Shown piece after piece: positions 712 to 21,750 of a stretch of 64,000 bases of DNA. This DNA is from Anaerolineae bacterium (GTDB lineage: Bacteria > Chloroflexota > Anaerolineae > DUEN01): assembly GCA_025060615.1 (NCBI GenBank), contig JANXBS010000015.1:1-64000 (forward strand), in the 5' to 3' direction. The position numbers and the translations under genes were made by a program. Under the pieces are notes generated by a model. The model worked only from the letters and a program-made list of their open reading frames with translations, searched no databases and was not told the origin of the DNA. The number at the start of each line of letters is the position of its first letter. Positions within the stretch are counted from its first letter, which is position 1.

Positions 712-1428
712 ATGGCAGAGGACTTGGAAGGGCGAAGGCCCTCGGAAAGTGTAGATCTGGCCCCTGAAACGGGTGGGAAGGGAGCGTACTCCCCCAAGGG
801 CTCTCCAAAGGTTGAGGAATCGGCAGCCTCGGCTGAGCCAAAAGCTGAGCCCAAAGAGCAAGCCGCTGCAGAGCCAGATCCCAGGGCGGAGTTACGTCAG
901 CGTGCTCGTTGGTATGTGGTCCATAGCTACTCGGGCATGGAAAACAAGGTGAAGCGCAATCTGGAGCACCGTGCCGAGTCCATGCGTGACCAAGGTGGGG
1001 ACAAGATCTTCCAGGTGATCGTCCCGACGGAGGAGGAGATCGAGCTAAAGGATGGCCAGCGGCGAATCGTCGAACGGCGTGTCTTCCCTGGCTATATCCT
1101 GGTCGAGATGGTCATGGACGAGGATTCTTGGTACGTGGTGCGGAACACCCCGGGGGTGACCGGCTTTGTGGGGATGGGAAACAAGCCGACACCCCTGGAG
1201 CCCGAAGAGGTCGAGCGCATTATGAAGCGCATCGAGGAGGAAGAGCCCAAGATCAAGAGCGACTTCCGTGTTGGGCAACGAGTCCGCATCACCGAGGGAC
1301 CTTTCAGTGATTTTCACGGCATCATTGAAGAGGTGTACACGGAGAAGGGAAAGGCGCGCGTGCGGGTCTCCTTCTTCAATCGTGAGACGCCCGTTGAGGT
1401 GGATTTCCTGCAGCTTGAGAAGCAATAG
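712..1428 (+). CDS. nusG: Transcription termination/antitermination protein NusG
   Basis: The 238-residue protein has an NGN domain starting near residue 63 (RWYVVHSYSGMENKV, later FPGYILVEM and TPGVTGFVG) and a C-terminal KOW domain (VGQRVRITEGPF, GKARVRVSFF). It binds the RNA polymerase clamp and links it to Rho or ribosomal S10. Before the NGN domain is an extra tail of about 60 residues rich in Glu, Ala, Pro and Lys, so the protein is longer than the roughly 180 residues of E. coli NusG. It has a Shine-Dalgarno AGGGAAG directly upstream and follows secE by 9 bases. Confidence 0.96.
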   Translation: MAEDLEGRRPSESVDLAPETGGKGAYSPKGSPKVEESAASAEPKAEPKEQAAAEPDPRAELRQRARWYVVHSYSGMENKVKRNLEHRAESMRDQGGDKIFQVIVPTEEEIELKDGQRRIVERRVFPGYILVEMVMDEDSWYVVRNTPGVTGFVGMGNKPTPLEPEEVERIMKRIEEEEPKIKSDFRVGQRVRITEGPFSDFHGIIEEVYTEKGKARVRVSFFNRETPVEVDFLQLEKQ

Positions 1429-1461
1429 CGCGCTTCAGCGCGTATCTCAGGGAGAGAGTGG

Positions 1462-1890
1462 ATGGCAAAGAAGATCAAGGCGATCGTCAAACTGCAGATC
1501 CCGGCCGGTAAGGCGAATCCGGCGCCTCCTGTGGGCCCGGCTTTGGGACAGCATGGCGTGAACATTATGGCGTTCTGCAAAGAGTATAACGCGCGCACGG
1601 CCTCAATGGTCGGAAACATTGTCCCTGTCGAGGTCACGATCTATCAGGATCAGTCTTTCACGTTCGTCCTGAAGACGCCGCCGGCCGCAGACTTGCTACG
1701 CAAGGCCGCCGGGATCGAGAAGGGCTCTGCAGAGCCCAACCGGCAGAAGGTAGGGAAGGTCACACGGGCGCAAATCCGTGAGATCGCCCAACAGAAAATG
1801 CAGGATTTAAACACCAACGATCTGGAAGCGGCCATGCGCATGATCGAGGGTACCGCGCGCAGCATGGGGCTTCAGATCGTCGAGGGCTAA
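1462..1890 (+). CDS. rplK: 50S ribosomal protein L11
   Basis: The 142-residue protein has the L11 N-terminal domain ([22 protein letters not shown] and [13 protein letters not shown]) and the C-terminal rRNA-binding domain ([19 protein letters not shown]). L11 binds 23S rRNA at the GTPase-associated centre and the base of the L10/L12 stalk. ATG 1462 follows GGGAGAGAG. It lies between nusG and rplA, its standard place, and length matches the family. Confidence 0.97.
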
Positions 1891-1950
1891 GAGAGCAGCT
1901 TGCAGCCGTGGGAGGGGTACTCCCCGTTAATACCACCAAGGAGTCTAGAG

Positions 1951-2664
1951 ATGCCGAAGCGAGGCAAGAAGTACTTGGCGGCGGCCGCTTTGGTGGATCG
2001 CAACCGTCTATATAGCCCCGAAGAGGCCGTTGAGTTGGTCAAGCAGATTTCGTACTCCAAATTCGATGCCACCGTGGAAATGCATCTGCGCATGGGGGTG
2101 GATCCCCGTCATGCCGATCAACAGGTGCGTGGCGTGGTCGTTCTGCCGCATGGGACAGGCAAACAGACGCGTATTCTAGTCTTCGCGGAGGGCGATGCCG
2201 CTCGCATTGCGCAGGAAGCAGGGGCGGATTACGTAGGCAGTGATGAGCTAATCCAGAAGATCCAAAGCGGTTGGCTCGATTTTGATGTGGCGATCGCTGT
2301 GCCACAAGTGATGGGCAAGGTAGGGCGTCTGGGGCGCATCCTAGGCCCGAGAGGGCTCATGCCCAGCCCGAAAACGGATACGATCGTGCCTCCGGAGGAT
2401 TTGCCGCGGGTGATCCGAGAAGCTCGCCTAGGGCGCGTGGAGTTCCGAGTGGATCGGACGGCCAACATCCACGTTCCTATCGGCAAGGTCAGCTTTGAAA
2501 AGCGGCAGTTGCTGGATAACATGGCTACACTGATGGACGCGATTAACCGGGCCAGGCCGGCGGCTGCCAAAGGGGCCTATATCCGCAAGGTGTTTCTAAC
2601 CGCCACGATGGCGCCTAGCATCAAGGTAGACCCGGTACAAGCGTCTGCAATGCGCGTGGCGTAA
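1951..2664 (+). CDS. rplA: 50S ribosomal protein L1
   Basis: The start chosen is ATG 1951, with AAGGAG seven bases upstream; the frame is open from TTG 1900, but those added residues are unlike L1. The 237-residue product begins [17 protein letters not shown] and carries the L1 signature region ([20 protein letters not shown]) and the C-terminal [18 protein letters not shown]1 binds 23S rRNA at the mobile stalk by the E site and often represses its own message. It is cotranscribed with rplK. Confidence 0.96.
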
Positions 2665-2790
2665 GGCTGTGCTGAAAAATCGCATATAGAGCCGAAGACA
2701 GCAGGTGCGGCTAGTCCGCTTAATCCTGGGAGGGCCTGCCGAGGCGAGAAGCTGGAGGTCTTCCTTCTCACGTAAAGGGGAAGAAGGACG
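2665..2790 (+). ncRNA. Ribosomal protein L10 leader RNA (regulatory)
   Basis: The 184-base rplA-rplJ gap holds the elements of the bacterial L10 leader: GACAGCAGGTGC followed by CTTAATCCTGG and CTGCCGAGGCGAG. In this family, the L10(L12) complex binds the leader and represses rplJL. Here the leader runs straight into the attenuator hairpin at 2791-2830. Identification is by motif memory; a covariance search with the Rfam L10 leader model would settle it. Confidence 0.8.
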
Positions 2791-2830
2791 AAGAGCCTTC
2801 GCGTCGGCTGGCGCGAAGGCTCTTGATTTT
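2791..2830 (+). terminator. Attenuator/terminator in the L10 leader
   Basis: Bases 2791-2803 (AAGAGCCTTCGCG) pair perfectly with 2812-2824, giving a 13-bp stem with an 8-base loop followed by GATTTT. It sits 18 bases before the rplJ start. This is the expected position for an intrinsic terminator that lets free L10 stop rplJL transcription. Confidence 0.8.
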
Positions 2831-2848
2831 GAAAGGGGGTGAGTCGTT

Positions 2849-3382
2849 TTGGCCATAACCAGAGAGAAAAAGCAGGCGTTGCTTACGGAGTATCTGGACA
2901 AAGCCCGCCGGGCGCAGATGATCATCATCACAGAACATCGGGGCTTAACCGTGAAACAGGCCCAGGAGCTGCGGCGTTCGTTGGCCCCGCATCAAGCGGC
3001 ATTTCATGTGGTGAAGAACACGTTGCTTCGGCTGGCCTTGCAAGAATTGGGGAGGCCTGTCCCTGATTCGCTGCTGGAAGGTCCTACCGCCGTCAGCTAT
3101 TGTTTTGGTGATATAGCGGCCGTGGCGAAGGCGGTGGATGACTTCGCGCGCGCCTCGGGCGTGTTGCAGATCCGCGGCGGCCTTCTCGGCTCGCAGGTGG
3201 TGGATGCCGAGGGCGTACGAGCTCTAGCCAACCTGCCGCCACGCGAGGTCTTGCTGGCTCGCGTGGTGGGCGGCATCCAGGCACCTCTTGTTGGCCTGGT
3301 TAGCGTATTGGGCGGAGTGCTGCGCGGCCTGGTGAATGTGTTAGACGCCCGCCGACGGCAGTTGGAAGAGGCCGCTGCGTGA
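2849..3382 (+). CDS. rplJ: 50S ribosomal protein L10
   Basis: The start is TTG 2849, supported by GGGGGTGAG (2835-2843) six bases upstream. The 177-residue product opens AITREKKQALLTEYLDKA and has the L10 core (IIITEHRGLTVKQAQELR, FHVVKNTLLRLAL, GPTAVSYCFGD) and a C-terminal helix that would bind L12 dimers. L10 anchors the L7/L12 stalk to 23S rRNA and L11. It is probably autoregulated through the leader just upstream. Confidence 0.95.
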   Translation: MAITREKKQALLTEYLDKARRAQMIIITEHRGLTVKQAQELRRSLAPHQAAFHVVKNTLLRLALQELGRPVPDSLLEGPTAVSYCFGDIAAVAKAVDDFARASGVLQIRGGLLGSQVVDAEGVRALANLPPREVLLARVVGGIQAPLVGLVSVLGGVLRGLVNVLDARRRQLEEAAA

Positions 3383-3446
3383 GTCGTGGGCGGCTGTACC
3401 GGTTCCGTTTTTGGCAAACAGCAAACTCTTGGGAGGTTAGGTGCAA

Positions 3447-3830
3447 ATGACGAAAGAAGAGATCATCAGCGCAATCGAGAAGATGTCAGTACTGGAACTG
3501 GCCGAGTTGGTGAAGGCTTTGGAGGCTCGCTTCGGCGTGAGCGCTGCCGCACCGGTGATGGCAGTTGGGCCTGCACCAGCGGCTGCGACAGCTGCCGCGC
3601 CTGAGCCAGTAGAGGAGAAGACGGAGTTCGACGTCATCCTCAAGGAAGTAGGCGCCAAGAAGATCAACGTCATCAAGGTCGTCCGCCAGCTTACCAATTT
3701 GGGCTTGAAGGAGGCCAAGGACCTGGTGGAAAGCGCGCCGGCGACAGTGCTACAGGCCGTGGCCAAGGCTGCCGCCGAGGACGCCAAGAAGCTCCTGGAG
3801 GCCGAAGGGGCTACAGTCGAGATCCGGTAG
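3447..3830 (+). CDS. rplL: 50S ribosomal protein L7/L12
   Basis: This 127-residue stalk protein recruits translation GTPases. It has an N-terminal dimerisation helix ([20 protein letters not shown]), an Ala/Pro-rich hinge (about residues 36-58) and the globular C-terminal domain ([36 protein letters not shown]). ATG 3447 is preferred; GTG 3441 is in frame and sits four bases after GGGAGG, so it cannot be excluded. The operon ends here at a hairpin rather than running on into rpoB. Confidence 0.95.
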
Positions 3831-3889: not shown

Positions 3890-5137
3890 TCACGGATATT
3901 TGCGTACATCCCTCCAGGCTTCGATCATTGCTTCCACGCTTGACCACGGCGTATCGGGGAAGAGAGCATCCACCGGAGCCAAAATAAAGCCGCCGCCAGG
4001 TCCTAAAGTGTGAACAGCCGCCTCTACAGCCTGGCGGATCTCTTCCCTCGACCCGCGAGCCAGTGTCACACCGCTGTTGATCCCGCCGGCTACTGCTAGG
4101 CGGCCCTGGAACTTCGCCTTGACTGCGTCCAAATCGGCATTATCTTGCACTGGATCCACAAAGTACAGAAGATCTATCCCGCCTTCTAGGAGCAGGTCGG
4201 CTAGAGCCAGCACACCCGTCGTCATCGTATAGGCAAAACGCGCTCCGGCCTGATGGGCTAAATCAACCAGATCCCTCAGATGGGGCAACACGAAGCGTCG
4301 AAACAGCGCCGGTGACCAGAATTCGGTGGAGCTATACCATCCACGCTGCACGACCATGTCCACGCCGCCTCCGTCCAGCATGAATTCCGTTCGCCGCCGA
4401 TCGAAATCGTAGATGAGGTCTACCAGCTCCTGAAAAAAATCAGGCTGAGTCACGGCCGCTACCACGGCCCCCTCCACCCCCATCAGCCAGACGATCGCGT
4501 CCATGCCAAAAGCGCTCCACCCCTGGACCAGTACGCCCCGCTCCTCGGCAAAACGACGCACAGCAGCCATCCGCTCTCGATAAGCAGTCTGCTGTTCGGC
4601 CGTCGGGTCCTGTAGCAGATAACGCAGCTTAGGCAGGTCTTCAGGCCCAGTCACAGCATGTTTGACGCCGCGCGGGATGTTGAAGTCCTCGAATAGGGGA
4701 ACATATTCAGGTTGAATCACCCAGCCAGGGCCAGATTCCTTTTCGGTCTTGCGTACTATATGATGAAGCACACCGGCCGGCGTCTGGTACTCTCGACACA
4801 GCAACGGATACGGCTCCGTAGCTGATGGTGGCTCCTGCCAGTCTCGCACGCACACGTCTGGGTGCGTACTCCATGGCGGCGAGATCTCCAGCACATCATC
4901 TAAGCCTAGGCTGAGCCAGCGGTCTACACGCTCAAAGTCGTCCTCGGGGTAACGCCAGGGCTCTGGCAGAGTATGGATATGCTCGAGCCGCATCGTGTAC
5001 CAGTGCGTGATCTCATGGCCATTCCATCGCCAACGGAGATGAGATGGCGCAGTGAATCCAAAGCACCAGCACAACATCGGCACATGATCTGGCTCTTGAT
5101 GAGCTATCGCCGCCAGCAACCGCTCACGAGAGTTCAT
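3890..5137 (-). CDS. Uroporphyrinogen decarboxylase-like (URO-D superfamily) protein
   Basis: ATG 5137 (MNSRERLLAAIAHQEPDHVP) is chosen because GGGAG lies eight bases upstream; an in-frame TTG at 5152 lacks such support. The 415-residue protein has the URO-D barrel pattern: the opening RERLLAAI...PDHVP, a central ALFRRFVLPHLRDLVDLAHQ and a final GGGFILAPVDALFP. The equivalent of the MtaA zinc motif reads YTMTTG, with no His or Cys, so a methylcobamide:CoM-type zinc site is missing. It is not haem-pathway HemE: the N-terminus differs and no haem genes are nearby. It is the last gene of a four-gene leftward cluster. Substrate unknown. Confidence 0.85.
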   Translation of the reverse strand: MNSRERLLAAIAHQEPDHVPMLCWCFGFTAPSHLRWRWNGHEITHWYTMRLEHIHTLPEPWRYPEDDFERVDRWLSLGLDDVLEISPPWSTHPDVCVRDWQEPPSATEPYPLLCREYQTPAGVLHHIVRKTEKESGPGWVIQPEYVPLFEDFNIPRGVKHAVTGPEDLPKLRYLLQDPTAEQQTAYRERMAAVRRFAEERGVLVQGWSAFGMDAIVWLMGVEGAVVAAVTQPDFFQELVDLIYDFDRRRTEFMLDGGGVDMVVQRGWYSSTEFWSPALFRRFVLPHLRDLVDLAHQAGARFAYTMTTGVLALADLLLEGGIDLLYFVDPVQDNADLDAVKAKFQGRLAVAGGINSGVTLARGSREEIRQAVEAAVHTLGPGGGFILAPVDALFPDTPWSSVEAMIEAWRDVRKYP

Positions 5138-5191
5138 CCGGGTATCTCCCAACCTGTCCTAAGCAGTAGAGCGAACGAGGTAGGCGGCTAT

Positions 5192-6511
5192 TCAAGCTGC
5201 GCTCACCCATTCGCATCCTACCATCGCTGCCAGATCGGCCAGCGGCCGCCTCAGGTCCCCATAAGCAGCCATCCAATGGTGTCCCAACCCCTCAGCCACG
5301 ATCCAGCGTAGAAGAGCGCGATAATCGGACTGAAATCGCACGCGCAGCGGATTTCCAGGGAAGATCATGTCGGTTTCCACTGCCTCACCGAACATCACGC
5401 CCATCCGATAGCCGTTTAAGGTCGGTACCAGGTTGACCAATGTCACCGGCCCTGGCCGGGCTGGGAAGAGCGCGCACACCCCTCGATTCATCAGACGCAC
5501 CGGTCCTAGCGTGATTTGACGGCGATCGTCTGCTAACGAAAAGCCGCCATTTCCGCAGTGCGAAAAGACGATGGCGTTCTCCTCCGCAATGGGATCGAGT
5601 AGATCAGTGTTGTGCACCGGCTGTCCTGTCAGTGTAGTCAGTATCAGCATGCCCAGCGCGCCGTTGATGTCTCCCTCGCAGGCGACAGGGATACCTTCTT
5701 CGGCCAGCAGCGAGATGGGCAGACAGACTTTGCCCATCAGATGCGGGTAACATCCCACGGCCATTGTGCTCAGCCCGAGCTCTTCGATGATCTCCTTCAA
5801 GGCCACATAAACCTGCATCGCTTCAACACCGGCCCCGTGGCTCGCCGTCACCCGTCCTACTTCGCTCGTGAGCTGTTTCCACCGCTCAGTCACTGATTCG
5901 GCAGGTACGCGCGCGGCCCGCTCCAGAAAGAGCTGGCTGTCTATCCCTACTACGCGCGGCCCGAAGATCCGCTTCAACGCCAGCTCATGAGCGGTCGTCT
6001 CGGTCATCCCCTCCACGCGATGGCCCAAATAGCCGATGCGAGCGCGCCGCAAATGGCGACGCAGCGCCGCCGCCCGCGCAAAGTCCCAGGCCCGTCGCAG
6101 CCCTTCCGGTGATTCCACCTCCTCAAAGAGGAAACAGTGAGGCCGGCCTAGCTGCTTTAGCATGAAGCAAAGCTGCTGCATCCCGCATAGCGAACCCGTC
6201 TCCATGCCTGGCCGCGCCCAGGCGATCACCGGCACATCGCACTCCTCCAACAGATCCAGAACCAGGTAATCCTCAAACCACGAGGCGGCCACCACGCAGA
6301 TGGCGTCCACCCGCTGATCGTAGAAGAAGCGCCCTGCGGCTACCGCAGAGGCTGGATCAGTAGCCAGCTGGAGCGATGGGCACAGCTCTAGCCGCTCAAG
6401 CCCAGCCTCGGCAAACGCCCTTTGCAGTCGATCCAGCAACATTGGCGCTTCGCCCGCCCCTACCTCTAACGGGCTGGCCACCGCAGTGAGGCCAAGGCGG
6501 ACACGGCTCAT
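5192..6511 (-). CDS. L-fucose/L-arabinose isomerase-like family protein
   Basis: This 439-residue protein resembles the FucI/AraA fold, whose members use a divalent metal to interconvert aldoses and ketoses. Visible features are an N-terminal Rossmann-like half (VDAICVVAASWFEDYLVLDL, then VPVIAWARPGMETGSLC), a central VACEGDINGALGMLIL containing the family's likely metal-binding Glu and Asp, and a C-terminal HCGNGGFSL. GGGAGG lies just before ATG 6511. It sits 10 bases after the aminotransferase gene and is surely cotranscribed with it. Substrate cannot be read from sequence; many members of this branch have no known reaction. Confidence 0.82.
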   Translation of the reverse strand: MSRVRLGLTAVASPLEVGAGEAPMLLDRLQRAFAEAGLERLELCPSLQLATDPASAVAAGRFFYDQRVDAICVVAASWFEDYLVLDLLEECDVPVIAWARPGMETGSLCGMQQLCFMLKQLGRPHCFLFEEVESPEGLRRAWDFARAAALRRHLRRARIGYLGHRVEGMTETTAHELALKRIFGPRVVGIDSQLFLERAARVPAESVTERWKQLTSEVGRVTASHGAGVEAMQVYVALKEIIEELGLSTMAVGCYPHLMGKVCLPISLLAEEGIPVACEGDINGALGMLILTTLTGQPVHNTDLLDPIAEENAIVFSHCGNGGFSLADDRRQITLGPVRLMNRGVCALFPARPGPVTLVNLVPTLNGYRMGVMFGEAVETDMIFPGNPLRVRFQSDYRALLRWIVAEGLGHHWMAAYGDLRRPLADLAAMVGCEWVSAA

Positions 6512-6521
6512 AATGACCTCC

Positions 6522-7763
6522 CTATAAGTATTTCATAGCTACCCGTCGAAACTCCTCTGCCCGCGCGTCCACCACGTCAAACCCGTCCCGCACCGTCACG
6601 CCGAAGGCGGAGCCTAAGCCAGGGTCGGACACGCCGATGCTGATGTTGATCGAACGGGAGAGGAGATCGTCGGTCTGAGGGAGCATCCCCTTCCAATACT
6701 TCACCTCGCCACCCTTAGAGGTGTAGTAAGGGCAGGTGAACGGACACCCCTCAGGCGTGATGGTACGCTTCTCCAGGATTTGCTCCATGTTCGAATATAC
6801 GTGCCATCCCGAATCGGCTACCACCTTGGTACCCAGCTCTCCAGCGATCTTGCGCGCGATCTCCTCGCTGGGGAGGATCACGGTGAGGATCGTGGCACAT
6901 TCCCCCTCAGGATCAGTAATCTCCCGAAACTCCAGGCCAGGTAGATCGGCGATAGCCTCCTTGAACCGTCGTTTGTTGGCCCGCAAACGGGATAGGATCA
7001 CCTCCAGCTTGCGCAATTGGGCCAGCAGTACCGCTGCGGTCAGCTCCGTCATGCGAAAGTCCAGGCCAACGAAGGGGCGTTGTCCGATCTCAACCCCCAT
7101 GCGCAGAGGCGAATGTCCCTGATCGTGAACGCCGAAGAACCGACGGTAGGCTGCCTCATCGTCAGTGACCACCATGCCCCCATCGCCGGCGGTGATGGTC
7201 TTGAAGATGTTGAAGCTGTAGGCGCCGGCATGACCAATCGAACCAACCCGGCGTCCCTTGTAGCTTGCTCCGAACGCCTGGGCACAGTCCTCGATGAGAA
7301 GCAATCCGTGCTCATCGGCGATGGCTTTCAGCTCGTCAAGCCGCGCAGGGTTCCCCAGCATATGAACGGCCATGATCGCCTTTGTGCGTGGCGTGATTTT
7401 GCGGCGCACATCGGCAGGGTCCAGATTGAACGTTCGGTCTATCTCGGCCAGGATTGGGATGGCACGGGCGTAAATGACGGATGACATGCTGGCGATAAAG
7501 GTATAGCCAGGCACGATCACCTCGTCGCCGGGGCCAACACCCAGGCCAGACAATGCCACTAACAGCGCGCTGGTGCCTGAGTTCACAGCTACCGCATAGC
7601 GGACGCCAACCAGTCGAGCGACTTCCTGTTCTAGATTATAGACTTTGGCTTTAAAGGCTGGGTTATCCGGGCTGCCGTAGCGGAAGAGGTAACCCGCCTC
7701 TATTACCTCCAACAGCTCTCGCTTTTCCTCCTCACCGATCAGTTCCATACCGGGACCAGACAT
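6522..7763 (-). CDS. DegT/DnrJ/EryC1/StrS-family PLP aminotransferase
   Basis: The 413-residue protein is a fold-type I sugar aminotransferase relative. It shows the N-terminal NSGTSALLVAL phosphate-binding loop, VIVPGYTFIAS, the IEDCAQAFGA segment and the lysine motif SFNIFKTITAGDGG with Lys188 as the expected Schiff-base residue. The family aminates keto-sugars or, in some members, acts as a dehydratase. GGAGGTG precedes ATG 7763. It lies between the GH38-like and isomerase-like genes. A second family member begins at 63444. Whether this one works in sugar synthesis or breakdown is open; the glycosidase neighbour favours breakdown. Confidence 0.93.
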   Translation of the reverse strand: MSGPGMELIGEEEKRELLEVIEAGYLFRYGSPDNPAFKAKVYNLEQEVARLVGVRYAVAVNSGTSALLVALSGLGVGPGDEVIVPGYTFIASMSSVIYARAIPILAEIDRTFNLDPADVRRKITPRTKAIMAVHMLGNPARLDELKAIADEHGLLLIEDCAQAFGASYKGRRVGSIGHAGAYSFNIFKTITAGDGGMVVTDDEAAYRRFFGVHDQGHSPLRMGVEIGQRPFVGLDFRMTELTAAVLLAQLRKLEVILSRLRANKRRFKEAIADLPGLEFREITDPEGECATILTVILPSEEIARKIAGELGTKVVADSGWHVYSNMEQILEKRTITPEGCPFTCPYYTSKGGEVKYWKGMLPQTDDLLSRSINISIGVSDPGLGSAFGVTVRDGFDVVDARAEEFRRVAMKYL

Positions 7764-7796
7764 GTGAGCACCTCCGTAGTTTTAGGTTGTTAATAA

Positions 7797-7830
7797 GGCA
7801 ACGAGGTGCCGAGGGCACGATCGCGTTGCC
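7797..7830 (-). other. Intercistronic hairpin after the GH38-like gene
   Basis: GGCAACG (7797-7803) pairs with CGTTGCC (7824-7830), and inside it GTGCC (7806-7810) pairs with GGCAC (7814-7818). On the minus strand it directly follows the GH38-like stop codon and is followed by TTATTAACAA. It could be a leaky terminator or an mRNA-stabilising stem that sets different levels for the upstream and downstream genes. Confidence 0.5.
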
Positions 7831-10800
7831 TCATTGTCTCAAAGTACGACAACGTATAGTGACGATGCCGTGGGCTGGCATCCTCACGCGCACGCTATGA
7901 CGATCGTATGGTAAGACCGCCGCATCCTCCTCGACAAGATTGGTGAGGAAAGCCTGGGCAATATCCAAAAACGGCAGGGTGACTGTGACAGTCACCTCTT
8001 GTCCTTCAGTTTCAGCCAATCGGACGATCCAGCCATCGCTATCCTCTGCGGCCTTGAGCGCGAGCACACTGACGTTCGGCTGATCAAGCTGGCAAAAGCT
8101 AGCCGTAACGGGCAACCAGGAGCCGGTTTCAGCCCGATTTCCAGCTCCCTGCGGCCCCATCACACAGACGGGCACCAACGGCGTAGACATCGCCCAACCG
8201 AAGTCACGCGCCCGGATTGCCAGGCTAGACGGATCTTCCCCGGCCTGTCCACCCTGGCCAGCAGCGATCCTTTGAGTCTGAATCGAGTACCGAAACAAGA
8301 CATCAGCTACCTGGACAGGTTGGAAGTTGGTACGGAAGTTATTCACCATTGCGTACGAGTAGATGTGTCCCTTTTCCAGTTGGGCTGGATCGCGCAGGAA
8401 AGCGTGCCCGTAGCCTGGTGGAGTGACCGCGTGGTGAGCTTGCGAGAGATACCCAGGCCACAGACCGCCTAACGCCACTACCGGTGCTTCTAGGCTGCTC
8501 CAGATCACCCCACTAGCCTCATCCCAAGCCATCACCCAGTGCTGCACGGCGTACGCATCGGTGTTCGTGCCGGGCAGTTGATCGCGAATCGGCTCGATTA
8601 CGGCATTGCTGGCCTCGTAGCGGAATCGGGGCCTAGTGATGGCGAAGGGAAAGGCGAAGTACAGCTCCAGCAGCGGCGTGGCGTCCCGCAGCAGACGGTT
8701 GGCGAAATCGATGCGCTTAACAGAATCGTACAAGATAATCTCCTGCATGCGTTGCGGGCAGCCAGGGGCATCCCCTTTGACGATCAGGCTAGCGCACACC
8801 GGTCCGCTCTCGCCGCGATAAACGATCGAACGGACAGGTGTAGCCATTTCCCCGGTCTCGGGCCAGCGCGCCACTAGTTGGTTAAAGCCGTAGGGGGCCT
8901 CGACGTCAACCCATTCTCGCTGTAACTCCTTGTCGAAAATGCTGCTCACGGCCCCGCTTTCGGGGTCGAGCGTGATCCGGTAGAAGCGGTTTTCTAGCCA
9001 GTGCTCCCCAACGATAAGGCTGCTCTCGAAGCGAGGAGACTGTGTCATAGGAACGATCCGATATGTTTTGTAGCCGAGAGGCGGAACATCCTCAGCCACA
9101 AAGATCAACGTCTTCCGATGAGCCGGGTCAACCAACAGATCCTTATGCTGAAGTTGGCTGGTCACTCCCAATGCATACTGGTAAGCGGCATAGGGCCGGG
9201 CTGCCAGTGGATCGTCCACGTTGACGATCTGATACGGCACGCTATGACCGGTCGAGAGGTCTATCAGCTTGAACGGTTGTTCCAGAAGCGTTGGCGGCAA
9301 GTTGACGATGTCCCGCCTGATGGCCGTGCCCGATACCCACATAGGTGGACCCTTATCGCCGGGGGGTGGGTAGCGCCAGTACATCGGCCGACTACACGGG
9401 GCCGGCATTACCGCAGGCAGATGGACCACATCTGTACGCTCCCATGTTAACGGATTAAACACAACGATGTGGTATCCCTCGTCAGTCAGACGAATCTGAT
9501 CCGCTAGCCGATTCGCGCTCTTCCAGAGGACGTCATGAGCCAGCGCGGCCGCACGATAGGCATGTTCGGCCTTCTGGCTCCAACAGGCGTCTTGGGCCGG
9601 TCCGATCGGGTGAGCCATACCCCAGGTGTGCTCGTCATAGAGGAGGATTTGATCGTAGGCCTCAGCCAGTATATCGGCAGGATACACGTAGTCGCTGACC
9701 AACGTAGCGCACGTGGCGAGCTTCTCCGCTGAGGTGAGCAGATCGTGGGTCAGCCGGTTGATGCCGGTCTCCTTGGCCGTGCTAGTCGCCCCGATGGTAT
9801 AGTCGGTGTTGGGTAGGTCACCGCGCAGGGTGCGAAGAGAGCTGCCTGCTGCTCGCTCGAACGCCTTGAAGAACTGCGCATTGGTAGCAACGATCAGCCG
9901 GGGGTACGCCCATCGCTGATTCCATTCGCTAGCGATCAAACTGAGTCGCACATCTGGCGGCGAGTTATCACGCTGTCCACCTTGGAACTTAGCGCGCAAT
10001 AAGTCATACGGATAGCCGCGCTGAGCCAAGTTGGTCAGGTGGTAGGCCACCTCTCGTTCAGCCTGCTCATATGTCCAAAGAAGGGACCAGTGGACGCTGC
10101 CGCCTTCGTACCAGAAGAGCACGCGCTGGCCATCCGGCCCCTCCCACCAGAAGGCGCCGATCATGTCGCGCGGCAGGATAGCTTCCTCATCCCAGAGGGG
10201 ATGTACCTGGAAGCCCCAGGCGAAGTAGTCAGGGATGGCAGGCGCGAAATAACGAATGCCGGCGCCGGCCAGAACGCTGGCCAGCCCCCAGGAGATGCCG
10301 GGGATATCGTTCAGCTCCGCAGTGTGGATAGGGATGCCGAAACGGCGCTTGAGGCGAAACGACGGATAGAGCAGGCGAATCTGCTCCTCGTGGCCACACA
10401 GCTCGCTTATCTCGTTGCCGAAGAGGGCAGTGACCTCAATGCGTCCCTCTCGCATCAAGCGCACTAGCCGTTCCACCGTGTCGGACGGGCGGTGCTCGAT
10501 GAAATGAAGCACAGACCAACCTTGCTCGATCACGTAGCGGAATCGGGATTCCTCTGGCCAGTCGGCGGTTTCCTCACAGTAACGCAGGACGTCGTCCAGG
10601 AAACGAGCATGCTCGCGCAGCACGTTGCTGGGGAGATCGGTATAGCCCAGGTCATGGTGAGAGCCGTGCACCAGGTAGATTTCCCAATGCCGTTCAGGCG
10701 TCCAAGGCCGCGTTTGCCGGTCCTGTACCTGTCCTTCGGCCAATAACATGAACTCTGCCTGGATGGTCTCACGCACATCGGGGATATAGATACGTCGCCG

Positions 10801-10980
10801 GCTTGTCCCGGGTTGTATCATGCCGAGACCCATCTGTAACTGGTATGAGCCCAGCTTGACGGCAAGGATGGCCTCGGCGGCCATACCATCGTTCGTCAGA
10901 ATCAGGTCCACACCTTGTTGGAGGCTATCTCCGCTGCGCACGAAGAACGCCGTCGGCTCAACCGCCGATAACTGGATCAT
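7831..10980 (-). CDS. Glycoside hydrolase family 38-like (alpha-mannosidase-type) protein
   Basis: The 1049-residue protein has a GH38-type catalytic half at about residues 95-400. The motif YLVHGSHHDLGYTDLP replaces the usual HxHxDxxW opening of alpha-mannosidases, and LNDIPGISWG resembles the family's Asp-containing segment. After about residue 500 come the beta-sandwich domains typical of GH38 (for example YRITLDPESGAVSSIFDKEL). No signal peptide is visible, so it probably acts in the cytoplasm on imported oligosaccharides. It is the first gene of the leftward cluster with the aminotransferase, isomerase-like and URO-D-like genes. Exact substrate and anomeric specificity cannot be assigned. 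Confidence 0.82.
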   Translation of the reverse strand: MIQLSAVEPTAFFVRSGDSLQQGVDLILTNDGMAAEAILAVKLGSYQLQMGLGMIQPGTSRRRIYIPDVRETIQAEFMLLAEGQVQDRQTRPWTPERHWEIYLVHGSHHDLGYTDLPSNVLREHARFLDDVLRYCEETADWPEESRFRYVIEQGWSVLHFIEHRPSDTVERLVRLMREGRIEVTALFGNEISELCGHEEQIRLLYPSFRLKRRFGIPIHTAELNDIPGISWGLASVLAGAGIRYFAPAIPDYFAWGFQVHPLWDEEAILPRDMIGAFWWEGPDGQRVLFWYEGGSVHWSLLWTYEQAEREVAYHLTNLAQRGYPYDLLRAKFQGGQRDNSPPDVRLSLIASEWNQRWAYPRLIVATNAQFFKAFERAAGSSLRTLRGDLPNTDYTIGATSTAKETGINRLTHDLLTSAEKLATCATLVSDYVYPADILAEAYDQILLYDEHTWGMAHPIGPAQDACWSQKAEHAYRAAALAHDVLWKSANRLADQIRLTDEGYHIVVFNPLTWERTDVVHLPAVMPAPCSRPMYWRYPPPGDKGPPMWVSGTAIRRDIVNLPPTLLEQPFKLIDLSTGHSVPYQIVNVDDPLAARPYAAYQYALGVTSQLQHKDLLVDPAHRKTLIFVAEDVPPLGYKTYRIVPMTQSPRFESSLIVGEHWLENRFYRITLDPESGAVSSIFDKELQREWVDVEAPYGFNQLVARWPETGEMATPVRSIVYRGESGPVCASLIVKGDAPGCPQRMQEIILYDSVKRIDFANRLLRDATPLLELYFAFPFAITRPRFRYEASNAVIEPIRDQLPGTNTDAYAVQHWVMAWDEASGVIWSSLEAPVVALGGLWPGYLSQAHHAVTPPGYGHAFLRDPAQLEKGHIYSYAMVNNFRTNFQPVQVADVLFRYSIQTQRIAAGQGGQAGEDPSSLAIRARDFGWAMSTPLVPVCVMGPQGAGNRAETGSWLPVTASFCQLDQPNVSVLALKAAEDSDGWIVRLAETEGQEVTVTVTLPFLDIAQAFLTNLVEEDAAVLPYDRHSVRVRMPAHGIVTIRCRTLRQ

Positions 10981-11024: not shown

Positions 11025-11053
11025 TTCACAAATTTACAAGACAATGCTATAAT
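11025..11053 (+). promoter_or_regulatory. Sigma-70-type promoter for the AbrB/PIN operon
   Basis: TTCACA (11025-11030), a 17-base spacer and a perfect TATAAT (11048-11053) lie 45 bases ahead of the antitoxin ATG. Confidence 0.72.
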
Positions 11054-11081
11054 ATGACTGATGTAATACCTATATTGTCTT
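11038..11081 (+). promoter_or_regulatory. Inverted repeat, candidate antitoxin operator
   Basis: AAGACAAT (11038-11045) is exactly inverted as ATTGTCTT (11074-11081). The arms flank the -10 box and the likely transcription start. AbrB-type antitoxins usually bind such sites to repress their own operon. The repeat is seen; binding is inferred. Confidence 0.55.
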
Positions 11082-11098
11082 ACTACTGGAGGATGATG

Positions 11099-11332
11099 AT
11101 GCAGACTAAAGTATCTGTACGCGGCCAAACCGTGATCCCCCGCCCCATCCGGGAAGCCTTAGGCATCACCTCTGCTACACGTTTGCAATGGGCGATCAAG
11201 GACGGCCTAATCATCGTACTGCCGATCCCGCCAGACCCAGTACACTCTGCTGTAGGGGTCCTAAAAGAGCGTGGGCCATCCACAGCAGACCTTCTGATGG
11301 AACGAAAGGCTCAGCGCGAGCGAGAAACATGA
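11099..11332 (+). CDS. AbrB/SpoVT-family antitoxin
   Basis: Three ATGs occur in a row (11093, 11096, 11099); only 11099 has correct spacing to GGAGG (11088-11092). The 77-residue protein has the swapped-hairpin AbrB motif KVSVRGQTVIPRPIREALGI, then a loop and the strand GLIIVLPI, and an acidic/basic C-terminal tail likely to wrap the toxin. It binds DNA as a dimer and neutralises the PIN protein, whose ATG overlaps its stop (ATGA). This order and coupling are standard for type II toxin-antitoxin pairs. Confidence 0.9.
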   Translation: MQTKVSVRGQTVIPRPIREALGITSATRLQWAIKDGLIIVLPIPPDPVHSAVGVLKERGPSTADLLMERKAQRERET

Positions 11333-11736
11333 CGATCTTCGTCCTTGATACCTCAGCCATACTCACAATCTTGAATCAAGAAGAGGGCGTAGAAACCGTG
11401 CTCTCCCTGTTAGATCAGGCTAAAGAGGGCCGAGCTACCGTCCATCTCCCCTTTATGGCTTTGATGGAATTGGAATACTTGCTCCTGCGCAGGCTAAGCC
11501 CGGAGGAAACGCAATCCCTTCTAATGCTAGTGCAAGCCTGGCCGGTGCGAGTGTCAGAATCGGATCCAGAATGGCGACATCGAGCTGCCTCAGTCAAGGC
11601 AAATACACCGGTGTCGATTGCCGATGCCTGGAACGCTTCTTTAGCACTGCTGCTCAACGCGGCATTGATCCATAAGGACCCCGATTACGAACACATCACA
11701 GGACTCCAGATGGTAAGACTGCCTTACAAGATGTAG
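11329..11736 (+). CDS. vapC: PIN-domain RNase toxin (VapC-like)
   Basis: ATG 11329 overlaps the antitoxin stop by four bases. The 135-residue protein has the PIN pattern of acidic residues: the N-terminal FVLDTSA (Asp near residue 6), an MALMELEYLL segment with the conserved Glu, and SIADAWNASLALLL with the third Asp, then KDPDYEH near the C-terminus. PIN toxins cleave tRNA or rRNA using bound magnesium. Its partner is the AbrB antitoxin directly upstream. The gene looks intact, so the module is probably active. Confidence 0.9.
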   Translation: MTIFVLDTSAILTILNQEEGVETVLSLLDQAKEGRATVHLPFMALMELEYLLLRRLSPEETQSLLMLVQAWPVRVSESDPEWRHRAASVKANTPVSIADAWNASLALLLNAALIHKDPDYEHITGLQMVRLPYKM

Positions 11737-11802: not shown

Positions 11803-14019
11803 TCAGCTTCGCTGCAGCACTAACACCCGCACATCGAGACTTCTCACCACAAGCGTCACAGTCTCCCCTTCGCGTTTTATCGGCTCACCCAGCAGGTCCT
11901 CAACGTGTGTCCAGCCGCTCGTGTCAATGCGTTCGATCACTTCGTGATTCGTCGGGTTGGTGAGGAGCCATGCTTCTTTGTCCCGGCCTACTCGTTTGCG
12001 TAGCAACAGCTCACCAACGCGCTCCGGTATCACGCCGCACTGGGCCAACAAGGCGCGCACGCAGGCTTGGGTTTTTTCGTCCCGATAAGCTGTGCCATTA
12101 TGGCCGACGTAGGTCCCCAGCAGCCAGGCTCGCCCCTGACCCAAATGACGCACCACTCCGGCAATGGCATCGCCATGGCGCAGGATCGGCTCGCCTCCCG
12201 GGCAAATAAAGGTCTCGATATACACATTGGCGCGCAATCGGTGGCCAGCCAGTGGCCCGACCCCGTCCAACATCGTTGCATCCAGGTACTCGCCCCAGGT
12301 GCGCTCCGGCGGGGACCAGCGGGGCGCATCTCCCGGCTCCCGCACCATGGTGAAGCTCTCCTGCCGCACGCCGAACAGCTTGCGCATGGTGGGCGATAGC
12401 TCGCCTCGGTTGCAATAAGCGTGCTCGTTGATGCGGCCCGGCGCGGCCTCGCTGATCAGGTTTCCACCGTTTTCGACATAGCGTGTCAATTTCTGTGCCA
12501 CTTCCTCGGACAGTGAAAGCGGAAAGGGCAGGATCAGTGCTTTGTACTGGCCGATGTACGCTTCGTCCAGTTCCGAAGCCTCGACGAAGTCCACGGGGAT
12601 GCCGGCGTCCCATAGCAGCCGATACCAGCCGCGCACATCGTACGGCAGATGCTCATAGCCCTGGTTGAGCAAATTGCAAAGCTGGTAGTTCCATTCATTG
12701 ATGAGGATCGCGACCTGAGACCATGGACGCGTTGGCTGGGCGAAGAGGTCGGCATGCTGATTAAGCGCTTGGCCTACGCGCGCGGCCTCCTCAAAGCGCG
12801 GTGTGGTGTCCCCTTCGCTGTCGAGCAGGCTAAAGCCGTTTTGCTCAGCCATATGGATTTCCGCTCGCGTCACCCAGAAGGAGATGACGGTCACGCCAGA
12901 GCCGACCGCAGTGAGCATCCAGCGGCGGATGTCATCAGGCGAGGGGACGCGGCCCTTATGGAAGCCAGTGCTCACGGGACCTCCCTGGAACTCGGCCGCC
13001 CAGATCGGGTTACCGCGCGGGTTACATGAGCGGATGTAGTCGTATCTGAGCGCTACGCCATCCCACATCTCGGTTAACAGCGCTTCATAGCGGTCCAATG
13101 GCTGGCCATCGGCGGGATAGCCATCGTCCCAGGCATGGAAGGTGTGCCAGGCCGGATAACAGGATGCGCCGAGGAAGTCCTGACAACGGGCGTAGGTCCA
13201 GCCGGTGCCCGAGCCGATGATCGGGCTGCTTTGGTGGGCGAAGATCGGCCGCTTCAGGGGGTCCGCTTCGCGGATGGCTTCAGCTCGGGCGCGCAGCACG
13301 TTGGCAATCTGCACGTTGTCCATGAAATAGTGCCAGTCCACGTTCTGGGGTTGGGGATAGCGGGTGATGGCGCAGCGATCCGGCGTGACAGAAGCCCAAT
13401 CTAGGTAGCGCGTGTTCCAGGCTCGGTTGAGGCCATCCAGGTCGCCATATTTTTCCTGGAGCCAGGTGCGGAAGGCGTTAAGGGTGTTCTCGCAGTAGCA
13501 AACCTGCTGCCCGGTTAACCCCTCGGACCAGTACCCGATCTCCTGCCAGATATTCCACACCATGACGTTCTCGTACTTGCCTAACGTGTGCACGAGCTGT
13601 TTGATGAACCGCTGCATGTCAGCGCGAGCACCGGGGTGGTCGTAGCACGGCCCGGGCTTGCCATCAGCGGGCAGGGTGGTCTGTGCCTCGTAGGCAATCG
13701 GGAGCCCGTTACGTCCTACCATACGGCAGCCGGGGTGCTTGCGCCAGAGCCAACCGGGAGCCTGTTCACACGTCAAGCCGATATAGACGCCCAGATCGAG
13801 CCGGGCCGCGTGCTCGATCAGCTCCTCGTAACGTGAGAAGTCGTAGTGCCCTTCTAACGGCTCATCTACTGCCCAGTGTTCCTGCAGTTTGATCAGGTTG
13901 AAGCCATGTCGTTTCAAGTTTTCCATGTCCTTCTTTAATTCGGACATGGGCGGCATCGGCTCACGACAAAGGTGGGAGCCGAGGGGGAAGAGGGTGGCGA
14001 AGGACTGCAAATTCATCAT
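11803..14019 (-). CDS. Glycoside hydrolase family 42-type (beta-galactosidase-like) protein
   Basis: The chosen start is ATG 14019 (the second ATG is 14016); the longer open frame would run into the upstream gene. The roughly 738-residue protein has a TIM barrel: KRHGFNLIKLQEHWAVDEP, an acid/base region VWNIWQEIGYW, and a likely nucleophile glutamate in IWAAEFQGGPVS. An A4-type glutamine-amidotransferase-like domain follows (about residues 420-640, YKALILPFPLSL) and then a small beta domain. GH42 enzymes remove terminal beta-galactose. No signal peptide is visible. It is downstream of two URO-D-like genes on the same strand. Sub-specificity is uncertain. Confidence 0.88.
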   Translation of the reverse strand: MMNLQSFATLFPLGSHLCREPMPPMSELKKDMENLKRHGFNLIKLQEHWAVDEPLEGHYDFSRYEELIEHAARLDLGVYIGLTCEQAPGWLWRKHPGCRMVGRNGLPIAYEAQTTLPADGKPGPCYDHPGARADMQRFIKQLVHTLGKYENVMVWNIWQEIGYWSEGLTGQQVCYCENTLNAFRTWLQEKYGDLDGLNRAWNTRYLDWASVTPDRCAITRYPQPQNVDWHYFMDNVQIANVLRARAEAIREADPLKRPIFAHQSSPIIGSGTGWTYARCQDFLGASCYPAWHTFHAWDDGYPADGQPLDRYEALLTEMWDGVALRYDYIRSCNPRGNPIWAAEFQGGPVSTGFHKGRVPSPDDIRRWMLTAVGSGVTVISFWVTRAEIHMAEQNGFSLLDSEGDTTPRFEEAARVGQALNQHADLFAQPTRPWSQVAILINEWNYQLCNLLNQGYEHLPYDVRGWYRLLWDAGIPVDFVEASELDEAYIGQYKALILPFPLSLSEEVAQKLTRYVENGGNLISEAAPGRINEHAYCNRGELSPTMRKLFGVRQESFTMVREPGDAPRWSPPERTWGEYLDATMLDGVGPLAGHRLRANVYIETFICPGGEPILRHGDAIAGVVRHLGQGRAWLLGTYVGHNGTAYRDEKTQACVRALLAQCGVIPERVGELLLRKRVGRDKEAWLLTNPTNHEVIERIDTSGWTHVEDLLGEPIKREGETVTLVVRSLDVRVLVLQRS

Positions 14020-14059: not shown

Positions 14060-15205
14060 TTATAAGGGGGACATCTCGTGCAAAGCCTCAATCATGGCAA
14101 TGCAATTCTCGGCCGGACAGGCCGGATGCACGCCGCCGGATGAACCCAAGATAAGCCCTCGTCCTACGCCTGTCACTACGCGCCTCACTTCTCGCTTCAC
14201 ATCCTCCGGCGTGCCAGCGGCCAGCACAGCTCGCTCATCTATCCCGCCCCAGAGGATCAAGTTGGGGTACAACCGCCGGATCTCAACGGGGTCCATGTTC
14301 TCTGATGGTGAGAGGGGATTGATCCCGTCCACGCCAGCATCTATCAGATCATCGAGGAACTCCCGCATGTCCCCTTCGCTGTGGTAGACAACCCTGATGC
14401 CGTGTTCATGGTAAGCGGCTACGATCTTACGCACAGCTGGCTTAAGAGCGAAGCGCAAGAACCGAGGCGAGAGGAGTAGGCCGTTATTATAGGCGATATC
14501 GGAGTAGGCTCCCAACGCTACCGGGCATTCTTGGGCCGTCAGGTGCTCAGCATATACATTACAGCTCAGCATATACATTTAGATGAATCACTCGGACGGT
14601 TCTTCGGCGACAGCGTCTAGATATTCAGCGATGGCCTGCGGTTGCTCTATCACCGCCTGAGCGAAGATATCCCAGCCAGCCAGACGATATAGATCATCCA
14701 ATCCCGCCCCTAGATAGGGCATAGCGATAGCTGTTTCACCCAGCATCATCCTAGCATATCGCAGCTGCTCAGGAAAATCTGGCGGCAGAGTAGGTAATTC
14801 CTTACGAGCCCGCTCGGCCTTACGATCCAAATAACTCAAAAAGCCAGAGAGGTCGGAGAAAGGGCGATGCTCGATCCACTCTGTGAAGCCATAGATCACC
14901 CAAACGAACCCGTCCTCATCTACAATCCGTTTCCCTTCACGCAACGGAGGGATATCACCCAGCACCGGGTAGCGCGGGTGATCGTAGATATGGCACCAGG
15001 GGATCATATCCATACTGGCGCGCACGGCGGCTGTCCGCTCGGCTTCGCTGTATCGACGGTCAGGACGGGGTTGACAGCCAGCCAGGCGCGGTACCATCTC
15101 TGCTAGCATCTCGTTCCACTCGTTGTCGGCGAAGGGAGGCCGATCGTACTCTTCAAAGTTCACGGCTGCAGTGAGCCGTTCGCGACAGTTCATCCCATCT
15201 CTCAC
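14060..15205 (-). pseudogene. Broken URO-D superfamily gene
   Basis: Two halves of one URO-D-like protein lie on the minus strand. The N-terminal part is 14588-15205 (CRERLTAAVNFEEYDRPPF) and the C-terminal part 14060-14578 (GAYSDIAYNNGLLLSPRFLR, VVYHSEGDMREFLDDLID). TGA at 14588 and TAA at 14579 interrupt the reading frame. Between the breaks, a different frame reads plausibly (TVRVIHLNVYAEHL). This fits a one-base loss near the GAAGAACC stretch plus a 19-base duplication at 14545-14579. The two changes restore the original frame downstream but leave stops between them. The start is GTG 15205 or ATG 15193. A sequencing or assembly error at the repeat is possible. Confidence 0.8.
14545..14579. 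repeat. 16-base direct repeat (19-base period) in the broken URO-D gene
   Basis: GCTCAGCATATACATT occurs at 14545-14560 and again at 14564-14579, three bases apart. A 19-base tandem duplication shifts the frame by one and lies exactly where the coding sequence breaks. Confidence 0.9.
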
Positions 15206-15244: not shown

Positions 15245-16381
15245 TTAGGGTGTCAGAGCACCTAGCTCATGAGCTAGGTCGATAAAGCGCCGGATGCGCG
15301 GCAAAGGAGTAAGCGGTGTGATCGGGCTGCCTGTGCTGATGATAAATCGGCCTACTCGCTTGCCAATCGCTACCTGCTCCACAATCGCCCTTCGCAAATC
15401 CTCATCTGTCCCGTTTTGCACCACGCCAATCGGATCAATGTTCCCCCACAGGCATATACTGTCTCCCACCTTTGCTGCGATCTCAGCCAGATTGTTGACG
15501 TACGATTTCATGCTGGTCTCCACAATCAGCGAATCCGCTCTCAGTGAGGCGATTTGCTTGACGCGGTCCATCACACCGCCGAAGTAGATCAACACCGCCT
15601 TTTTGCCCAGCGCGTGAATCTCATCTACCATCGCCTTGACGTAGGGGAAGCTGAAACGCTCATAGAAGTCCACGGAGATCATGTCGCAAGTCGTCAGGGC
15701 GTCATCCACGTAAATGGCGTCATCTCCCGCTGTAGCTAGCGCGCGGATCTCCTCGATCGTCTGCTCCAGGATCCGCTGGCTCAAATAGTGAATCAGATCT
15801 GGATCATCGTAAAGCAATGAAAACAAGTTGGTTTCGCCCACGTACCAGGTACACTGGTAGAAGGTGCCGATCACACCGTTTAGAATGAATTTGTCCGGAA
15901 ATGCCTCGCGAGCAGCCTGGATGAAGTCGTAACGTCCAGAGGCGAGCAGTTCCGACGCTGACCTGACTACCACGTGCTGCTGGACATCCTTCCGGTCAAA
16001 GACATAGCGTGTCTGATTGGGCCCACTCGCACTATGAGGCAGGTCCTCGTTGAGCCAGATCATCTGTCCTGTGCGGCGATCATAGTAGTAGTGTTGACTG
16101 TCTTTCTGGATAATCTCTAGCGCCTCTCGTTCTTCGCGGCTGCGGGCCACGATTGGTTGCAGGATGTCGAATGGAAGTTTCTGGTCGAAATTAGCGTAGG
16201 CCTTCACGTGTTCAGCAGGCTCTTGAATTTGCCAGGCATAGTATGTCCAAGCCGGCTGGCCGGTGATCTCGCACCAATGATCACATTGCAGCAAGAAAAT
16301 GTACGGCACGGCTACTGGGAAGCGATCTACAGGACGACCTTCCAAGGTGGCAAACATTCTCTGCCTTGGTGTTAACGCCAT
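15245..16381 (-). CDS. URO-D superfamily protein
   Basis: The 378-residue protein opens LTPRQRMFATLEGRPVDRFP, a standard URO-D-like start, and contains GDDAIYVDDALTTCDMIS and FSFPYVKAMVDEIHALGKKA, then LWGNIDPIGVVQNGT near the end. The strand that carries HxCG in MtaA-type enzymes here reads LIYFGGVMD, with no zinc ligands. GGAG lies six bases before ATG 16381. It is the first gene of a leftward unit with the broken URO-D-like gene and the GH42 gene, driven by the promoter at 16611-16639. Function is not assigned; a decarboxylase, methyltransferase or binding role is possible. Confidence 0.85.
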   Translation of the reverse strand: MALTPRQRMFATLEGRPVDRFPVAVPYIFLLQCDHWCEITGQPAWTYYAWQIQEPAEHVKAYANFDQKLPFDILQPIVARSREEREALEIIQKDSQHYYYDRRTGQMIWLNEDLPHSASGPNQTRYVFDRKDVQQHVVVRSASELLASGRYDFIQAAREAFPDKFILNGVIGTFYQCTWYVGETNLFSLLYDDPDLIHYLSQRILEQTIEEIRALATAGDDAIYVDDALTTCDMISVDFYERFSFPYVKAMVDEIHALGKKAVLIYFGGVMDRVKQIASLRADSLIVETSMKSYVNNLAEIAAKVGDSICLWGNIDPIGVVQNGTDEDLRRAIVEQVAIGKRVGRFIISTGSPITPLTPLPRIRRFIDLAHELGALTP

Positions 16382-21583: not shown

Positions 21584-21750
21584 CCTTTCCTGATAAACTA
21601 CCCTGATCAATTCCTACAGCTCACCTGGAAACTTATCCGAAGAGATTCATCCATTGGACAAACGGCGGGTGAACGGTTGACTGCCCGCACTGGAGGTCGG
21701 AGCCCCCATCGAACCTACTGTTGTTAGAAGATGCATCGGGAGGGTAAGGC

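What the first reader, a model, noticed from the sequence alone, without database searches (positions are those of the whole stretch)
3890..10980. Undescribed four-gene sugar cluster: GH38-like, DegT, fucose-isomerase-like, URO-D-like
Four genes run leftward with gaps of 67, 10 and 54 bases, so they look like one operon. A GH38-type hydrolase would free a sugar, while a sugar aminotransferase, an aldose-ketose isomerase-like protein and a URO-D-like barrel would act on it. I know of no described pathway with this set. It could handle an amino- or methyl-substituted mannose-type sugar. Gene order is seen; the pathway idea is inference.
Basis: partly seen in the sequence, partly recalled or inferred. 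Interest (0 to 1): 0.68.

Follow-up and report, generated by a model that had tools for sequence, protein, structure and literature searches.

The report
Mobile sugar-use gene cluster
Four neighbouring genes are part of a rare set of enzymes, inherited together and apparently swapped between distant bacteria, that probably takes up and breaks down an unusual sugar nobody has yet identified.

Summary
Four leftward genes (GH38-like, DegT, isomerase, URO-D; gaps 67, 10, 54) lie at 3890-10980. They belong to a larger set: UROD_C, UROD_B (broken by a tandem duplication) and GH42 lie just upstream, split off by a vapBC toxin-antitoxin insertion. The set is real, not chance. In 396 genomes of the class, the isomerase occurs in 6, its URO-D partner in 8 (all 6 included) and the GH38 clade in 7 (all 6 included); Fisher p about 1e-12 to 5e-12. 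Order is kept across phyla, and relatives place it with ABC importers, ROK regulators, GFO/IDH dehydrogenases and other hydrolases, so it is catabolic. DegT is the loose member: swapped, decayed or absent elsewhere. The isomerase has an arabinose-isomerase fold with most of its metal site. The URO-D lacks all three zinc ligands of the thiol methyltransferases. The GH38 keeps H-x-D and a later His but not the usual nucleophile Asp. A DegT-GFO/IDH fusion and a double URO-D fusion point to coupled steps. No paper describing this set was found in the library searched. Best reading: intracellular breakdown of an unusual, perhaps amino-substituted, hexose. Substrate and URO-D chemistry remain unknown.

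The parts
3890..5137 (-). UROD_A: URO-D superfamily protein, 415 aa, no zinc motif of MtaA
   Evidence: PF01208; fold closest to MtaA 4ay8 and to HemE structures; zinc ligands replaced
5192..6511 (-). ISO: arabinose/fucose-isomerase-fold metalloenzyme, SftI-like, 439 aa
   Evidence: NF048012 143 bits; AraA 4f2d TM 0.87; E279, D281, H318 invariant, H412 near-invariant
6522..7763 (-). DegT: PLP-dependent sugar aminotransferase, 413 aa, Lys188 kept
   Evidence: PF01041; best PDB match KdnA 5k8b, 6.9e-86; Lys188
7831..10980 (-). GH38-like hydrolase, 1049 aa, no evident signal peptide
   Evidence: Pfam GH38 domains; H108, D110, H451 conserved, usual nucleophile Asp not conserved
11803..14019 (-). 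GH42 beta-galactosidase-like, 738 aa (start by inspection)
   Evidence: PF02449 3e-43; next to the GH38 in L007, L104, L106, L078
14060..15205 (-). UROD_B: URO-D gene split into two frames by a 19-bp tandem duplication near 14546-14580
   Evidence: homologue of its C-half (42%) before GH42 in L104; fused to UROD_C in L075
15245..16381 (-). UROD_C: third URO-D, 378 aa
   Evidence: PF01208 1e-32; 44-47% relatives beside ISO in L073 and L075
16611..16639 (-). TTGACA-17-TATAAT promoter-like site upstream of UROD_C
   Evidence: 12 of 12 consensus match; number of such sites not above shuffles, so suggestive only
11093..11736 (+). vapBC-like toxin-antitoxin pair inserted between GH38 and GH42 (antitoxin about 11093-11332, PIN toxin about 11330-11736); not part of the module
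   Evidence: PIN PF01850; AbrB-like reading by eye; PIN gene absent from all other loci

Best explanation
This is a rare, horizontally spread, intracellular sugar-catabolism module. An imported glycoside is cut in the cytoplasm by the GH42 and GH38-like enzymes. The freed unusual hexose is converted from aldose to ketose by the metal-dependent isomerase. DegT, paired in relatives with a GFO/IDH dehydrogenase, moves an amino group off (or onto) a keto carbon, as NtdA/NtdC do in kanosamine synthesis but probably run in the catabolic direction. The URO-D barrels act on the same sugar chain by a chemistry that does not use the zinc-thiol site of MtaA. Shown: gene set, co-inheritance, order, catabolic neighbours, retained PLP lysine and most of the isomerase metal site, lost zinc ligands. 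Inferred: order of steps, amino-sugar substrate, direction of the DegT step, role of the URO-D barrels.
For: Co-occurrence in 396 class genomes: ISO 6, UROD_A 8, GH38 clade 7, all six ISO genomes holding both others; p 1.4e-12 and 5e-12, about 1e-10 without the index genome. Same order DegT-ISO-UROD_A in L004 and L012, GH42-GH38-DegT-ISO...UROD_A in L007, GH38-ISO-UROD_A in L011. L017 carries ROK-UROD_A-creatininase-like-solute-binding protein-two permeases-ISO-DegT-GFO/IDH. L076 and L078 carry ABC permeases beside GH38 and GH42. DegT-GFO/IDH fusion of 825 aa next to ISO in L074 and UROD_C-UROD_B fusion in L075. No signal-peptide-like N-termini on the window's GH38 and GH42. NtdA/NtdC precedent for a DegT plus dehydrogenase pair, PMC8788734; that NtdC is a GFO/IDH family member is from memory.
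Against: No kinase or aldolase was identified beside the window genes, so the route to central metabolism is not visible. DegT is decayed beside the isomerase in L005 and L008 and no DegT was found within the fetched flank in L006, L009 and L010, so amino chemistry is not essential to the core. The GH38 nucleophile is unsettled. No expression or biochemical data exist here.
Confidence: 0.55

Rival explanations
1. Methyl-sugar demethylation: the URO-D proteins transfer a methyl group from an O-methyl sugar to a corrinoid protein, and the other enzymes use the freed sugar.
For: URO-D superfamily includes corrinoid O-, S- and halogen-demethylases (PMC10418091). UROD_A's best fold match is MtaA. 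MTTB-family methyltransferases lie near ISO in L016 and L011. All 8 module genomes tested hold a B12-binding_2 protein.
Against: The three MtaA zinc ligands align with M310, T312 and D395. No B12-binding protein appeared among the cluster neighbours typed by Pfam, though not every neighbour was typed. B12-binding_2 is about as common in genomes without ISO, 13 of 15. An E-X14-E-X20-H motif, recalled as a demethylase zinc motif, is absent from UROD_A, UROD_C and the UROD_A-type copy in L007; one match lies in the UROD_B C-half.
Confidence: 0.2
2. Biosynthesis of an amino sugar for a surface glycan, with DegT working as in KdnA or the LegC and perosamine synthases.
For: DegT's nearest solved relative is KdnA, and NCBIfam ranks LegC and PseC first.
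Against: No nucleotidyl- or biosynthetic glycosyltransferase was found near any ISO locus among the genes typed by Pfam (a phosphorylase-type Glycos_transf_3 in L013 apart); hydrolases, importers, sulfatases and ROK or LacI regulators dominate.
Confidence: 0.1
3. Keto-glycoside route: a GFO/IDH dehydrogenase and a xylose-isomerase-like barrel cut the bond after 3-oxidation, as in C-glycoside degradation, and ISO and DegT handle by-products.
For: GFO/IDH plus xylose-isomerase-like genes lie beside ISO in L007 and L074, and the barrel alone in L037; same family pair in DgpA/DgpC (PMC8563793).
Against: Neither gene lies in the window's cluster, and classical hydrolase families are present instead.
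Confidence: 0.1
4. Chance neighbours with unrelated substrates.
For: All four are large, common superfamilies.
Against: Specific subfamilies co-occur with p near 1e-12, and order is kept across phyla.
Confidence: 0.02

Closest known systems
Sulfoquinovose isomerase SftI (NF048012) and L-arabinose isomerase AraA (4f2d)
   Same: Fold (TM 0.87 to AraA); E279, H318 and H412 align with Glu and His positions recalled as the AraA metal ligands
   Different: 143 bits against a cut-off of 700 for SftI; 15% identity to AraA; no other sulfoquinovose-pathway gene was recognised in the cluster
KdnA, 8-amino-3,8-dideoxy-manno-octulosonate transaminase (5k8b)
   Same: DegT fold class, PLP lysine, alignment over 376 residues
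   Different: Sits in a catabolic setting; a KdnB-type alcohol dehydrogenase was not seen in the cluster
NtdA/NtdC kanosamine pair (PMC8788734)
   Same: A DegT aminotransferase paired with a sugar dehydrogenase, fused in L074
   Different: Biosynthetic in Bacillus; the window cluster lacks the dehydrogenase gene
MtaA methylcobalamin:coenzyme M methyltransferase (4ay7/4ay8) and HemE
   Same: URO-D barrel
   Different: All three MtaA zinc ligands replaced; TM 0.57 by query length; 17% identity
GH38 alpha-mannosidases (Ams1, 6lz1)
   Same: Domain layout, H-x-D motif and later His
   Different: Position aligned with the nucleophile Asp is not Asp; a nearby Glu193 is conserved in 12 of 13 clade members

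Membership tests
Sulfoquinovose isomerase (SftI) | NCBIfam equivalog score of at least 700 bits | tested here: not met
   143 bits
AraA/FucI-fold isomerases | Fold | tested here: met
   TM 0.87 to AraA, 0.84 to FucI
AraA/FucI-fold isomerases | Metal-binding Glu/Asp/His | tested here: inconclusive
   E279, D281, H318 invariant and D303, H411, H412 near-invariant; the AraA E333 position is T302 with D303 beside it, so one ligand is shifted or replaced
MtaA/CmuA methyltransferases | Three zinc ligands His, Cys, Cys | tested here: not met
   Align with M310, T312, D395; scores 25-45 bits against cut-offs of 235-600
Uroporphyrinogen decarboxylase HemE | hemE equivalog match | tested here: not met
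   No hemE match for UROD_A
URO-D superfamily | PF01208 above gathering score, URO-D barrel | tested here: met
   64.7 bits against 23.9; fold
GH38 | GH38 domains above Pfam gathering score | tested here: met
GH38 | Catalytic nucleophile Asp that also binds zinc | tested here: inconclusive
   Aligned position is not Asp; Glu193 two residues on may substitute; the alignment is remote
DegT/DnrJ/EryC1/StrS aminotransferases | PF01041 and PLP lysine | tested here: met
   Lys188 in all 14 sequences aligned
Carbohydrate-utilisation gene cluster | Glycosidase, transporter and regulator together | tested here: inconclusive
   Transporter plus regulator in L017 and transporter plus glycosidases in L076; window has glycosidases and a ROK gene 4 kb away but no transporter was identified nearby
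Carbohydrate-utilisation gene cluster | Induction by and growth on a substrate | not testable with these tools
   needs culture

The most novel reading that the evidence does not exclude
An undescribed sugar pathway in which URO-D-fold enzymes, stripped of the zinc-thiol site, carry out a carbohydrate reaction (for example carbon-carbon or carbon-nitrogen bond chemistry on a ketose), working with a new subfamily of AraA-fold isomerase and a GH38 clade with a replaced nucleophile.
Probability: 0.3. Interest if true: 0.72.

Novelty: new variant of a known kind. Interest (0 to 1): 0.47.

Why it matters
URO-D-like genes of unknown role are abundant in uncultured environmental bacteria; the first look gave up to about 80 candidates per genome here. 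This module ties one subfamily to a defined sugar set by co-inheritance and gives a short list of four to seven enzymes to assay, which would make the role of sugar-linked URO-D proteins testable.

Tried and rejected
Chance adjacency: rejected by co-occurrence. Zinc-thiol methyltransferase role for UROD_A: rejected by ligand replacement. Corrinoid protein as a marker: uninformative, about equally common in genomes without the module. DegT as a core member: rejected, since close DegT relatives (55-63%) occur without ISO in other sugar clusters and DegT remnants are left in L005 and L008. E-X14-E-X20-H demethylase motif: not found in UROD_A or UROD_C. Literature searches for the set gave nothing. 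Promoter and terminator counts do not exceed shuffles, so operon structure rests on gap lengths.

Full report
The four genes exist as described. On the minus strand, ORFs at 7831-10980, 6522-7763, 5192-6511 and 3890-5137 encode a 1049-aa GH38-type protein, a 413-aa DegT protein, a 439-aa isomerase-like protein and a 415-aa URO-D protein. The gaps of 67, 10 and 54 bases are exact if the last gene starts at its ATG at 5137, and Shine-Dalgarno-like sequences precede DegT and the isomerase.

The cluster is bigger. On the same strand follow GH42 (start near 14019), a URO-D gene broken into two frames (UROD_B, 14060-15205) and an intact third URO-D (UROD_C, 15245-16381). The break in UROD_B coincides with a 19-bp tandem duplication. 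A promoter-like TTGACA-17-TATAAT lies upstream at 16639-16611, though such sites are not above the shuffled expectation. A vapBC-like pair on the plus strand (11093-11736) separates GH42 from GH38; the PIN gene is absent from every other locus, while GH42 and GH38 are direct neighbours in L007, L104, L106 and L078. So the insertion probably split an ancestral unit (inference).

Co-inheritance is the main result. In 396 genomes of the class, ISO (E <= 1e-60) is in G000, G010, G045, G088, G244 and G301. UROD_A (E <= 1e-80) is in these six plus G031 and G224; in G224 the UROD_A gene lies beside the end of an ISO gene that runs off the contig. The GH38 clade (E <= 1e-150) is in the six plus G336, which shares its genus with G301. 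Fisher tests give 5e-12 and 1.4e-12, and about 1e-10 without the index genome. The six genomes come from five families; relatedness was not otherwise corrected for, and E-value cut-offs differ between the three searches.

Outside the class, ISO relatives at 48-72% identity were found in Planctomycetota, Acidobacteriota, Latescibacterota, Armatimonadota, Lentisphaerota and the UASB270 scaffold, and in 4 of 289 genomes of the phylum of G753. In the ISO tree the window's protein sits among sequences from several phyla, and the same-class copy from G301 falls in the other main clade. L007 has ISO from one clade and UROD_A from the other. Horizontal transfer with reshuffling is the simplest reading, although many inner branches are weak.

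Gene order: DegT-ISO-UROD_A in L004 and L012 (GH38 before DegT in L012); ISO-UROD_A in L005, L006, L009, L011 and L018; GH42-GH38-DegT-ISO-GFO/IDH-xylose-isomerase-like-UROD_A in L007, with a ROK gene beside it; ROK-UROD_A-creatininase-like-solute-binding protein-two permeases-ISO-DegT-GFO/IDH in L017. In the Lentisphaerota-like genomes the hydrolases differ: GH1 in L075, GH116 and GH2 in L073, GH42 in L074, GH20 in L014. The setting is catabolic throughout; no nucleotidyltransferase or biosynthetic glycosyltransferase was seen among the genes typed by Pfam.

DegT is optional. L005 keeps only residues 1-16 and 352-407, and L008 only residues 273-313, just upstream of ISO. L015, L016, L073 and L074 use a different DegT at 35-40% identity, and close DegT relatives occur elsewhere in Chloroflexota without ISO, beside ABC transporters, LacI, PfkB, sulfatase or GFO/IDH genes. 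L074 fuses that second DegT type to a GFO/IDH dehydrogenase in one 825-aa ORF, and L075 fuses two URO-D barrels matching the window's neighbours UROD_C and UROD_B. Such fusions support coupled steps.

Active sites. ISO: profile and model match arabinose isomerase; E279, D281 and H318 are invariant and D303, H411 and H412 nearly so. DegT: Lys188 is kept in all 14 sequences aligned, so it can form the PLP aldimine. UROD_A: model pLDDT 85.9, nearest fold MtaA, but the three zinc ligands align with M310, T312 and D395 (identity of the ligands from memory). GH38: H108, D110, D225 and H451 are conserved; the position aligned with the Ams1 nucleophile is not Asp, and Glu193 is conserved in 12 of 13 clade members. 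Whether it is an active retaining mannosidase is open.

Mechanism. Most likely an imported glycoside is cut inside the cell, since the window's GH38 and GH42 show no signal-peptide-like N-terminus, and the sugar is isomerised and further processed. The DegT with GFO/IDH pairing matches the NtdA/NtdC logic of kanosamine metabolism (PMC8788734; family assignment of NtdC from memory). The methyl-sugar alternative remains possible because URO-D proteins include corrinoid demethylases (PMC10418091), but nothing here specifically supports it: corrinoid-binding proteins are about as common in genomes without the module. The role of UROD_A is the weakest step of the model.

Literature searches returned no paper describing this set. 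The library lacks most subscription journals, so absence is weak evidence.

Noticed in passing
window 11093-11736 (+): vapBC-like toxin-antitoxin pair inserted between GH38 and GH42; an 8-bp inverted repeat (AAGACAAT...ATTGTCTT, about 11038-11081) spans its TATAAT box and may be its operator.
   Followed up: partly
window 14546-14580 (-): 19-bp tandem duplication that breaks the UROD_B reading frame; real decay or assembly error not distinguished.
   Followed up: partly
window 20336-23223 (+): ROK regulator with a MarR-type helix followed by a UxaE tagaturonate epimerase; related ROK genes flank the module in L007 and L017.
   Followed up: partly
L075:3334-5568: 744-aa fusion of two URO-D barrels.
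   Followed up: partly
L074:3079-5556: 825-aa fusion of DegT aminotransferase and GFO/IDH dehydrogenase.
   Followed up: partly
L016:8542-9978 and L011:2445-3869: MTTB-family methyltransferases near ISO; partner corrinoid protein not found among the neighbours typed.
   Followed up: no
window 712-3830 (+): Ribosomal cluster (NusG, L11, L1, L10, L7/L12 by eye) ends about 60 bases from the end of the converging URO-D gene.
   Followed up: no
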